Below are positions 31,731 to 35,227 of a stretch of 35,227 bases of DNA, piece after piece. The translations under genes were made by a program, and so were the position numbers. The DNA is from Bacteroidales bacterium (lineage in GTDB: Bacteria > Bacteroidota > Bacteroidia > Bacteroidales > UBA12481), in NCBI GenBank assembly GCA_012523435.1, contig JAAYIP010000219.1:1-35227 (forward strand). Reading direction: 5' to 3'. The notes under the pieces are model-generated. The model saw nothing but the letters and a program-made list of their open reading frames with translations. It did not search any database and was not told where the DNA came from. Within the stretch, counting starts at the first letter, position 1. Each line of letters begins with the position of its first letter.

Positions 31731-32456
31731 TTAATACCTAACCAGAGCAGTTTCTACGCCGAGAGATATTTTGGGTAGTTCCACGGGAACCGTATCTAGG
31801 AATAGAGGACCCATTCTGTAGGTTGCTGTTATTGCAAATCGGTTAAATCCGAGTCGTGCAAAAAGCTCCGGTACCCAATCCTGCATATATTCCAGCCCCC
31901 TGAAGATCTGTTTCGTTTTGCGGTACCAATTACCTGTGTCATTGTTTCCCGGATCGGTTTGAACTAACCGGCTTCCCATCAACAAGGTTTCCCTAACCCC
32001 AATATCCAGGTAACGCCCCAAGTAGTTGCCCCTCTGCCCAAATCGAAATCGTAATCCAAGGCCCGTCGTTGCCTTGCTCAGATGAAGGATCTGTCGGGAG
32101 TGGATGTCAGTATCGGGAAATTGTTTGCCTTCAAACTGATTGAACCGGACATTATCCCATCTTAGTCCGGCTTCTAGAATAAAGGCTAATGGATTGAAAA
32201 TCTTTAATTTATAACGATAGCCAGCCGCAAATGAACCGGTGAGGGGAATCTTTATCAGTTTTTGTTCTGTTTGAGGGTAGGGAATAGCGAACCCCATTTC
32301 CAGGTAAAGATGTCCGAAATGTAGTTTGTTTGGCCCATAGTTGCCTGCTCCGGGTACCGAGTCAACATCCTGCTGGAGAACCATTTCCTGACCTTTTACT
32401 CCCATCAGGGAGGTGATTATCAGGATGATTGCTGCCAAGATCTGTTTTTTTATCAT
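31731..32456 (-). CDS. Probable outer-membrane beta-barrel protein of unknown function
   Basis: 241 residues from the ATG at 32456. It has a signal peptide (MIKKQILAAIILIITSLMG, cleavage near VKGQ) followed by alternating hydrophobic/polar strands with aromatic girdle residues (LYLEMGFAIPY, FAAGYRYKL, FILEAGLRWDNV, GLGLRFRFG). This pattern is usual in small Bacteroidota outer-membrane barrels. The final residue is an aromatic Tyr. The start codon overlaps the protease stop (ATGA), so it is the last gene of a three-gene operon. A longer start at 32471 would sit inside the protease gene. No specific family is recognised. Confidence 0.75.
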   Translation of the reverse strand: MIKKQILAAIILIITSLMGVKGQEMVLQQDVDSVPGAGNYGPNKLHFGHLYLEMGFAIPYPQTEQKLIKIPLTGSFAAGYRYKLKIFNPLAFILEAGLRWDNVRFNQFEGKQFPDTDIHSRQILHLSKATTGLGLRFRFGQRGNYLGRYLDIGVRETLLMGSRLVQTDPGNNDTGNWYRKTKQIFRGLEYMQDWVPELFARLGFNRFAITATYRMGPLFLDTVPVELPKISLGVETALVRY

Positions 32457-33760
32457 TTGGTTGCCCTCCATTCTATTTGTGTTCCCCGGTAAGTAGCACG
32501 TATGACATCACCAGGCAGGTATCTGTATTTATCAATTTGGATTGTTCCGGGTTCTAGTATCCGGTACACGCCGTAATGCCTAAGGTAACCATCAGGTCGG
32601 GCAATGTGGTAGTAAAGGTATTGTTCTTCGCGGTTGGAGTTACTCTTGACTGGAGACTGTTTTGTAGAAATCGTTACACCATTTTCAGATTTATCGACTG
32701 AAACGGTGACGATGGGTTTAGCGCGTGGGGTGTTTAGTACTCTGGATGCCTTCGGGATGCCAAAACCGTGAGCATAATCGTAATAGGGATACAGATGCCC
32801 GGCCTGTTCCACCTGGTGTAAAATGTCCATTGCCGTGGCGTCGGGATTCATTTGCCAAAGGCAGGCTGCAAAACCAGTTACCAGGGGAGCTGAAAAGGAA
32901 GTGCCGAACATGATTCGTATCCCCTTTGGACTTAGGGCGGCAACCTTGCCTGGAGCGCTAATGTTCGGTTTACTTCGCTTGTCGGCTGTTGGCCCGCGAG
33001 AGCTGAAATTAGCTACTATGCCGGTTTTGGGGTCAATAGCACCTACACTGAGGATAGAATCCGCATCAGCTGGTGTCCCGAGGTAAAACCACTTATTGGC
33101 TCCCTCGTTTCCCATTGCGTTGATTATCAGAATGTTATTTTTTGCGGCATAACTCGCAGCGCGGGAGGAGGGGCTAGTTTTTCCATCCAGATCGCTCAAA
33201 AAATAGCGTTGATAGGTGTATCCAAGGGAGGATTGAATAATCTGTGCTCCGTTGGCAATTGCCCATTCCACAGCTTTTCCCCAATTGATCTCTTCGCGGC
33301 GGGGTTCTCCATTCATTTCGGTTCTGGCCAGCAGAAACTCTGCATCAGGAGCAAGACCCAGAGGAGTTCCCTGATAGATGCCGGCAATACAGGATAAGAC
33401 TGCAGTGCCATGAGGATTTCCGGTGTACACATCCTCGCGGTTTCGCACAAAATCCCAAGTTGCTATAATCTGTTTATTATCAAATAGATGCTTTAATCCC
33501 GGATGAGTATTTGTCCCTGGAAACCCGGCGTCAATGACTGCGATTCTTATCTTTTTCCCAGACAATCCCATGATTCGAAACAATTCGGCATCCAGGTAAT
33601 TTAGTTGTTCACGGGCGGTCAGGCTGAGATTGCTGTTCAGGAGAGCTGGCTGTTCATTGCCAGGAGGAGTCTGGCACTTGGCTGAGTTTTCTCTGATCGC
33701 GGGCAAGAAGGCAGCCAGTGCAACGATGATCCAGGTTATGGGGTGTGCTAGGGTATTCAT
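32453..33760 (-). CDS. Secreted S8-family subtilisin-like serine protease
   Basis: 435 residues with an N-terminal signal (about residues 1-29). The subtilase catalytic triad is complete: Asp in RIAVIDAGFPG, His in NPHGTAVLSCIAG and Ser in GTSFSAPLVTGFAA. The oxyanion Asn is in NAMGNEGANKW. A beta-rich C-terminal segment of about 90 residues follows the catalytic domain but does not match the T9SS type A or B sorting signals, so the protein may stay in the periplasm. Its stop is TGA, overlapping the next ATG and followed in frame by TAA. It lies 15 nt after the pseudophosphatase gene. Confidence 0.92.
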   Translation of the reverse strand: MNTLAHPITWIIVALAAFLPAIRENSAKCQTPPGNEQPALLNSNLSLTAREQLNYLDAELFRIMGLSGKKIRIAVIDAGFPGTNTHPGLKHLFDNKQIIATWDFVRNREDVYTGNPHGTAVLSCIAGIYQGTPLGLAPDAEFLLARTEMNGEPRREEINWGKAVEWAIANGAQIIQSSLGYTYQRYFLSDLDGKTSPSSRAASYAAKNNILIINAMGNEGANKWFYLGTPADADSILSVGAIDPKTGIVANFSSRGPTADKRSKPNISAPGKVAALSPKGIRIMFGTSFSAPLVTGFAACLWQMNPDATAMDILHQVEQAGHLYPYYDYAHGFGIPKASRVLNTPRAKPIVTVSVDKSENGVTISTKQSPVKSNSNREEQYLYYHIARPDGYLRHYGVYRILEPGTIQIDKYRYLPGDVIRATYRGTQIEWRATK

Positions 33761-33775
33761 CTAGTAATCTGAATG

Positions 33776-35227
33776 TTATTGGAGTATGTCTCGGATGATA
33801 TTTCCAACGGATCCTTCCGGTCTGGGAATGTTTAAAATCCTTGACAGAGTTGGTGTAATATCCAGAGGGGTAACCGGTTTATCACAAATGCCGGGATTAA
33901 TTCCCCATCCGTACCATACCATTGGGATATGGCGGTCGTAGGAGTGTGGGCTACCGGAGTCGCTATCTGTATTTTCCTCCTGAATCCAGCCTGGCTGCAG
34001 GATCAAAATCAGATCACCTGTCCGGTCGGGGTAAAAAGAGTTTTGAAGCAGGTCGGCCCAAGGTTGTGTTACGGCTCCAGTAACCAGCCTATCAGCGGGT
34101 ATGGCTCGTGAAACACCTTCGAAATGGGTTAGAAATCGGGCAGCTTGTTCCTGAATATCGAGAAAAGGAATGTTTTTGCTGTCGATCAGGGTTTCGTTTA
34201 GGTACACCTGAAGGTTAATATAATTCTCGACCCAATCGCCCTCTCCATAAATTGCTGTAAGATAAGAATTTAGAAGAGCCATGGCATTACGATAGCGAAA
34301 ATATCCACCAGGAAGTTTAAGTGACTTATTGTAGTCCGGATCGCGGGAAACGCCATGGGTAGAGGTTAAAATGAACAGGCTACTATCCCGGCCAACGGTT
34401 TCCTCCACCTGATGGATCAATCGTTGGATCTCGATATCCAGTCGGAGCAAGGCGTCAGCGACTTCACGCGAATCGGGGCCGAAGAGTAGATTAAGCTGAT
34501 GGATTGCCGTAAAGCTGACCCATAAGATATCGGGGTGCTTGTCTGTACCGAGATTTTCTTCCAGCATGGCTGCTTTGGCGAAGTCGGCCACCAGCGTGTT
34601 TCCAAAGGGAACTTTGGTTAGAATCTCAAAATCCTGGCTTAGGCTCTCTTTACGGATGCGGGCCATTTTATAAGGGAAGGTTTTGAATCGGTTAAAGAAT
34701 CCTGTTTCAAAGGGATTGTCATCAGGGATGATGATCTCATAGAGATTATCGGCCAGAAGTTGATTCCATTCACGTTCAATATAAATTTCAGCGATATTCC
34801 GTTGGTTATAATGGTTCACCCATTGCGGGATCTCTTCCATGTAGTGACTGCTGGTCATCCACTTTCCATTGGCGGAGTTGAACCAGTAGCAGGAAGATGG
34901 TTGATGCCCGGCTAGCAGGACGCTGGATTCGGGCTGGAGTGAAACCGTCACTACTTTGCTACGGTTATTGCTGGCCAGTAAAAGGACATCGTTGATGGTA
35001 GGGGTCAGCAGATACCTTGGGGAATGCCGTGCGAGCAGAGACAGTGTTCCCACTGGTCGGGCTGTTTGGTCAGCCCTACAAAACACCTCTTCACCGCTGC
35101 GGCGATTGTACCACTTAGCGGAAATGATTCCGTGCAGTGCTGGGGTTGATCCGGTAGAAATCGAGGCGTGGGATGATCCGATATCGGCCATCAGGAAAGG
35201 AATGTTGGCATCAGAAAAGGAGAGCCC
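33776..35227 (-). CDS. Alkaline-phosphatase-superfamily protein (PafA-like) with a degenerate active site, partial at window edge
   Basis: 483 residues are visible; the N-terminus lies beyond the right edge. An ATG at 35191 is internal to the conserved domain. PafA-like landmarks are aligned without gaps: SISTGSTPALHGI, WFNSANGKWMTSSHY, LPQWV-like IPQWVNHYN, FGPDSREVAD, YDRHIPMVWYGWGINPG and DITPTLSRILNIP. The catalytic residues are changed: the nucleophile Thr position is Ile (ADIGSSH), the Asn of GNxW is Ala, the Lys/Arg phosphate clamp is Gln/Glu, the zinc-ligand Asp and His of the SxxDxxGH motif are His and Leu, and the Asp of TADHG is Thr. Two His ligands remain. This is therefore probably a pseudoenzyme. 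It is first in an operon with a protease and a barrel. Confidence 0.85.
   Translation of the reverse strand, partial: GLSFSDANIPFLMADIGSSHASISTGSTPALHGIISAKWYNRRSGEEVFCRADQTARPVGTLSLLARHSPRYLLTPTINDVLLLASNNRSKVVTVSLQPESSVLLAGHQPSSCYWFNSANGKWMTSSHYMEEIPQWVNHYNQRNIAEIYIEREWNQLLADNLYEIIIPDDNPFETGFFNRFKTFPYKMARIRKESLSQDFEILTKVPFGNTLVADFAKAAMLEENLGTDKHPDILWVSFTAIHQLNLLFGPDSREVADALLRLDIEIQRLIHQVEETVGRDSSLFILTSTHGVSRDPDYNKSLKLPGGYFRYRNAMALLNSYLTAIYGEGDWVENYINLQVYLNETLIDSKNIPFLDIQEQAARFLTHFEGVSRAIPADRLVTGAVTQPWADLLQNSFYPDRTGDLILILQPGWIQEENTDSDSGSPHSYDRHIPMVWYGWGINPGICDKPVTPLDITPTLSRILNIPRPEGSVGNIIRDILQ

What the first reader, a model, noticed from the sequence alone, without database searches (positions are those of the whole stretch)
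33776..35227. Full-length pseudophosphatase of the PafA family
The PafA-type fold landmarks are kept along almost 480 residues, yet nearly every active-site residue is replaced: Thr to Ile, Asn to Ala, Lys/Arg to Gln/Glu, Asp/His to His/Leu, Asp to Thr. An intact frame with lost catalysis points to a selected binding or scaffolding role rather than decay.
Basis: partly seen in the sequence, partly recalled or inferred. Interest (0 to 1): 0.65.

Follow-up and report, generated by a model that had tools for sequence, protein, structure and literature searches.

The report
Order-wide inactive phosphatase kept by selection
This gene encodes a protein that looks like the bacterial phosphatase PafA but has lost nearly all of its catalytic residues, and most of its counterparts across a whole order of gut and aquatic Bacteroidota have lost theirs too while staying under strong selection, so the protein probably now works by binding something rather than by cutting phosphate.

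Summary
Confirmed. The ORF at 33776-35227 (-) is co-linear with E. meningoseptica PafA over 483 residues (E about 1e-83). The N-terminus (about 66 aa) is cut off by the contig edge. This is not one decayed gene. Of 81 PafA-family proteins read from the window's order, 73 keep only 0-4 of 9 catalytic/Zn residues, while all 39 read from outside the order keep 9/9. Frames stay open and dN/dS is 0.03-0.13. The columns that lost constraint are the active site and its second shell. A different segment, PafA residues 365-475 (between H353 and H486), gained constraint (p about 5e-24; no such gain between active clades). Some in-order relatives with an intact site already carry the segment signature, so its specialisation preceded loss of catalysis. 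Loss may have happened several times, but a single origin is not rejected. Best reading: a secreted, probably periplasmic PafA-fold pseudophosphatase acting as a binding or scaffold protein through that segment. Operon contexts (S8 peptidase here; Lnb and SecA in other families) hint at an envelope or export role, unproven. A published PafA survey discarded such sequences.

The parts
33776..35227 (-). Pseudophosphatase ORF of the PafA family; 483 codons, 5' end (about 66 codons) missing at the contig edge
35180..35182 (-). Nucleophile position T79 -> Ile16
35117..35119 (-). N100 -> Ala37
34928..34936 (-). K162/R164 -> Gln98/Glu100
34487..34501 (-). Zn ligands D305/H309 -> His243/Leu247
34355..34360 (-). 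Zn ligands D352/H353 -> Thr290/His291 (only H353 kept)
33956..33958 (-). Zn ligand H486 -> Ser424
33986..34321 (-). Segment equivalent to EmPafA 365-475 (between H353 and H486) that gained constraint in the pseudoenzyme group: F310, W332, Y336, Q340, F365, G413, W414
32453..33760 (-). S8 subtilase family gene 15 bp downstream, same strand; neighbour kept in the window's family
31731..32471 (-). Unannotated 246-aa protein overlapping the S8 gene; third gene of the same run

Best explanation
The gene encodes a secreted, probably periplasmic PafA-fold protein that no longer hydrolyses phosphoesters. It belongs to an order-specific PafA subfamily whose segment between H353 and H486 (EmPafA 365-475) became specialised while the enzyme was still active. 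In most lineages the Zn and phosphate sites were then lost and the fold was kept, so the protein now works as a binding or scaffold protein, with that segment as its likely contact surface. Shown: homology, loss of the site, conservation of the loss across the order, purifying selection, shift of constraint, and presence of the segment signature in intact in-order members. Inferred: no catalysis, binding role, periplasmic location. Weakly inferred: a part in envelope biogenesis or protein export, from operon contexts (S8 peptidase here; Lnb and SecA in other families).
For: Site loss: 8 of 9 residues replaced in the window. Distribution is bimodal: 47 homologues (including EmPafA) with 8-9/9 and 73 with 0-4/9; 39 of 39 read from outside the order are intact. 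dN/dS 0.03-0.13. Of 49 columns at least 95% conserved in active PafA, 26 stay at least 80% conserved in the pseudo group; the 13 that fall below 50% are T79, H83, N100, Y112, K162, D163, R164, D305, G308, H309, D352, H353 and H486. Segment 365-475: mean entropy change -0.61 against +0.36 elsewhere, Mann-Whitney p 4.5e-24; in the control between two active clades the segment does not gain more than the rest. Intact in-order homologues already carry the segment signature. K162+R164 net charge is 0 or negative in 70 of 73. Orthologues have hydrophobic signal-like N-termini without a lipobox Cys.
Against: No structure could be modelled (pLDDT about 34), so where residues 365-475 lie on the fold is untested. 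Every clade has some conserved residues of its own; the control was one comparison, and columns share phylogeny, so the p value overstates certainty. No partner is known. Neighbours differ between families (ychF, M14, nadC, crcB, Lnb/SecA), so no single pathway is implied. A few members keep a partial metal site (L121 and L126 keep D305, H309 and H486).
Confidence: 0.75

Rival explanations
1. It is still an enzyme: the PafA site was rebuilt into a different catalytic site, with other metal or acid-base residues, in each lineage.
For: H353 is kept in 33 of 73 and D38 is Asp or Glu in 56 of 73 pseudo members; a pocket may remain.
Against: No shared replacement set exists: at each former catalytic column the pseudo group scatters over many residue types, the commonest at 18-45%. 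An enzyme family would keep a common set.
Confidence: 0.12
2. A gene decaying after loss of its function, caught before it broke up.
For: Catalytic residues are replaced by unrelated residues.
Against: About 180 of 295 genomes of the order hold a strong PafA-family match, nearly all with open frames; dN/dS is 0.03-0.13; non-catalytic core columns stay conserved and new ones appear.
Confidence: 0.02
3. An accessory or regulatory subunit specific to protein export or lipoprotein maturation, for instance an Lnb/SecA partner.
For: The gene order Lnb-pseudo-SecA recurs in one group of families, often with overlapping or near-zero spacing to Lnb; Lnb is also encoded elsewhere in the window's genome.
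Against: In the window's family the neighbours are ychF and an S8 peptidase. Several genomes with the pseudoenzyme have no Lnb hit (G025, G088, G034). Shared position is weak evidence of function.
Confidence: 0.2
4. A phosphate- or phospholipid-binding sensor that keeps ligand binding but not hydrolysis.
For: Same fold family as a phosphate-handling enzyme.
Against: The phosphate-binding K162/R164 pair is lost and often replaced by acidic residues; Zn ligands are gone.
Confidence: 0.08

Closest known systems
PafA, phosphate-insensitive alkaline phosphatase of Elizabethkingia meningoseptica (PDB 5tj3, 5too) and other Bacteroidota
   Same: Co-linear sequence over the whole length, same length class, signal-like N-terminus in orthologues.
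   Different: Nucleophile, Asn, Lys/Arg and most Zn ligands replaced; segment 365-475 carries its own conserved signature; below the NCBIfam PafA cut-off (451.7 vs 650 bits).
PhoK/PhoY-type alkaline phosphatases (5xwi, 3q3q; NF051873)
   Same: Same superfamily, distant sequence match.
   Different: Far weaker match (72.5 bits in the PDB search); catalytic residues absent here.
Pseudoenzymes in general (for example pseudoproteases, pseudokinases)
   Same: Fold kept under selection after loss of catalytic residues.
   Different: In the PMC text searches made here I found no description of one in the PafA family.

Membership tests
PafA alkaline phosphatase | Full-length co-linear sequence homology to PafA | tested here: met
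   phmmer E 2e-83 over residues 1-482; PF01663 86 bits
PafA alkaline phosphatase | Curated NCBIfam equivalog score (650 bits) | tested here: not met
   451.7 bits for the window fragment and 495.8 for a full-length orthologue
PafA alkaline phosphatase | Thr79 nucleophile | tested here: not met
   Ile16
PafA alkaline phosphatase | N100, K162, R164 substrate contacts | tested here: not met
   Ala37, Gln98, Glu100
PafA alkaline phosphatase | Two-Zn site (D38, D305, H309, D352, H353, H486) | tested here: not met
   Only H353 kept of the five visible; D38 lies outside the contig
PafA alkaline phosphatase | Phosphomonoesterase activity | not testable with these tools
   needs purified protein
PafA alkaline phosphatase | Signal peptide / periplasmic location | tested here: inconclusive
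   Missing from the window; orthologues have hydrophobic N-termini ending in AQA-like sites, judged by eye only
Pseudoenzyme | Loss of catalytic residues shared by orthologues | tested here: met
   73 of 81 in-order homologues have 0-4 of 9
Pseudoenzyme | Purifying selection on the protein | tested here: met
   dN/dS 0.03-0.13 in close pairs of other families; dS is saturated within the window's genus
Pseudoenzyme | No catalytic activity | not testable with these tools
   needs an assay

The most novel reading that the evidence does not exclude
An order-wide pseudophosphatase family in which the phosphatase first acquired a second, non-catalytic function in the 365-475 segment and then lost catalysis several times independently, leaving a core envelope-biogenesis factor in gut Bacteroidales that sits between Lnb and SecA.
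Probability: 0.25. Interest if true: 0.8.

Novelty: new variant of a known kind. Interest (0 to 1): 0.62.

Why it matters
PafA homology is used to predict phosphate release by Bacteroidota in guts, soils and water. In this order most full-length homologues read here lack the catalytic residues, so annotation by homology alone overstates phosphatase capacity. A published PafA survey kept only ORFs with the key residues (423 of 468 isolate ORFs; PMC8812569), and I found no follow-up of the discarded ones in the searches made. A widespread, strongly selected protein of unknown function next to Lnb and SecA would be a good target for genetics. A family with both active and inactive members (f85) makes it possible to study how an enzyme becomes a binding protein.

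Tried and rejected
Structure prediction of the window protein and of a full-length orthologue: pLDDT 34.3 and 33.6, not usable, so no fold search was run. The missing N-terminus was not found elsewhere in the genome; a strong ychF match is also missing, consistent with an assembly gap there. Idea that catalytic loss arose in one event: the trees prefer several changes (2, 4), but AU tests do not reject one clade (p 0.51; p 0.32), so it is left open. Idea of a strict functional link to Lnb: not supported, since several pseudoenzyme genomes have no Lnb hit. Literature: no hits for pseudophosphatase with PafA; two unrelated papers for pseudophosphatase with Bacteroides; one unrelated paper for PafA with pseudoenzyme. 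Gene numbers recalled from memory for B. thetaiotaomicron gave nothing. L379 looked like a signature residue in one alignment but shifted in another, so it is not used.

Full report
Observation. The window is contig C78 of a 2.6 Mb, 369-contig genome. The ORF at 33776-35227 on the minus strand is open for 483 codons and runs off the contig. It matches PF01663, the NCBIfam PafA model below its cut-off (451.7 of 650 bits) and PafA of E. meningoseptica, 5tj3, at E 2e-83 over residues 1-482 without rearrangement. Residue by residue, in literature numbering (from my own knowledge of EmPafA, checked to fall on the expected residues): T79 is Ile, N100 Ala, K162 Gln, R164 Glu, D305 His, H309 Leu, D352 Thr, H353 His (kept), H486 Ser. 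The gene is not full length: orthologues have about 66 more N-terminal residues, which no other contig supplies.

Related sequences. In 41 genomes (the window's own and 40 relatives), 30 have a match. All genus and family members long enough to score lack the site. I then searched 295 genomes of the order: 215 had a match at E <= 0.001, of which about 180 by my count are strong (E below 1e-30), nearly all with open frames near 550 aa. I read regions from many of these and from 40 places elsewhere in the phylum. Of 120 aligned PafA-family proteins (119 read here plus EmPafA), 47 keep 8-9 of the nine residues and 73 keep 0-4; nothing lies between. All 39 read from outside the order keep 9/9; one further region gave no usable ORF in my ORF picker. 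Within the order 8 are intact and 73 are not. Nearest named records are MAGs labelled Bacteroidetes, Bacteroidales or Porphyromonadaceae.

Selection. Nei-Gojobori dN/dS between close pairs with dS about 0.5-1.4 is 0.03-0.13. The newly fetched members of these pairs were checked and are degenerate at the nine sites. Pairs within the window's own genus are saturated at dS, so this is shown for relatives, not for the window gene itself.

Where constraint was lost and gained. Of 49 columns at least 95% conserved in active PafA, 13 fall below 50% in the pseudo group: the nine sites plus H83, Y112, D163 and G308. Mean pairwise identity within the two groups is similar (0.37 and 0.35), so this is not general divergence. 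The segment 365-475 between H353 and H486 shows the opposite: entropy drops by 0.61 bits on average against a rise of 0.36 elsewhere (p 4.5e-24); in a control comparing two active clades the segment does not gain more than the rest. Signature residues are F372, W393, Y397, Q401, F426 and W475, all present in the window. Caveat: columns are not independent of phylogeny, so the p value is a guide only.

Order of events. Intact in-order proteins of families f60, f62 and f85 carry the same signature. In f85 one genus is intact and two are degenerate. So the segment specialised before catalysis was lost. Trees without the nine columns place intact members among degenerate ones, but AU tests do not reject a single degenerate clade. 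Repeated loss is therefore likely but not shown.

Surroundings. In the window the gene is followed after 15 bp by an S8 subtilase gene and an overlapping unannotated gene, with gldD and gldE on the other strand. In relatives the usual upstream neighbour is ychF, often with an M14 carboxypeptidase bearing a T9SS tail; in other families nadC or crcB (names by eye); and in one group Lnb upstream and SecA downstream. Lnb adds the third acyl chain to lipoproteins in Bacteroidota (PMC13103446).

Mechanism. Best supported: a non-catalytic PafA-fold protein that binds a partner through the 365-475 segment. Shown: site loss, selection, shift of constraint. Inferred: absence of activity, the binding role, periplasmic location. 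Weak: an envelope or export role.

Comparison with the known. It resembles PafA in sequence from end to end but fails its defining catalytic features, so it should not be filed as an active PafA. It behaves like a pseudoenzyme. The 2022 PafA survey kept only ORFs with the key residues, 423 of 468 isolate ORFs (PMC8812569); I found no description of the discarded group in the PMC searches made. Subscription papers were not searchable.

Limits. Two structure predictions failed. H486 lies in a gap-prone loop and its column is less certain than the others.

Noticed in passing
L095, L098, L099, L100, L106, L108, L109, L110, L112, L113: Gene order Lnb (lipoprotein N-acylation, PF13387/PF25221) - pseudo-PafA - SecA, often with overlapping or near-zero spacing to Lnb.
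   Followed up: partly
L041/L092 (G180), L051 (G095), L052 (G251): One family (f85) holds both an intact PafA and two degenerate ones carrying the same segment signature: a natural active/inactive pair.
   Followed up: partly
L121, L126: Two related members keep D305, H309 and H486 but lack T79, K162 and R164: possibly metal-binding without catalysis.
   Followed up: no
window 32453-33760 (-): S8 subtilase with D, H and S motifs apparently intact by eye, in a short same-strand run with the pseudophosphatase and an overlapping 246-aa protein.
   Followed up: partly
G071 (L094, L144), G134 (L111, L112): Some genomes carry both an intact PafA and the pseudo form.
   Followed up: partly
window 35227 edge: ychF, the usual upstream neighbour, has no strong match in this genome; together with the cut N-terminus this suggests an assembly gap.
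   Followed up: yes
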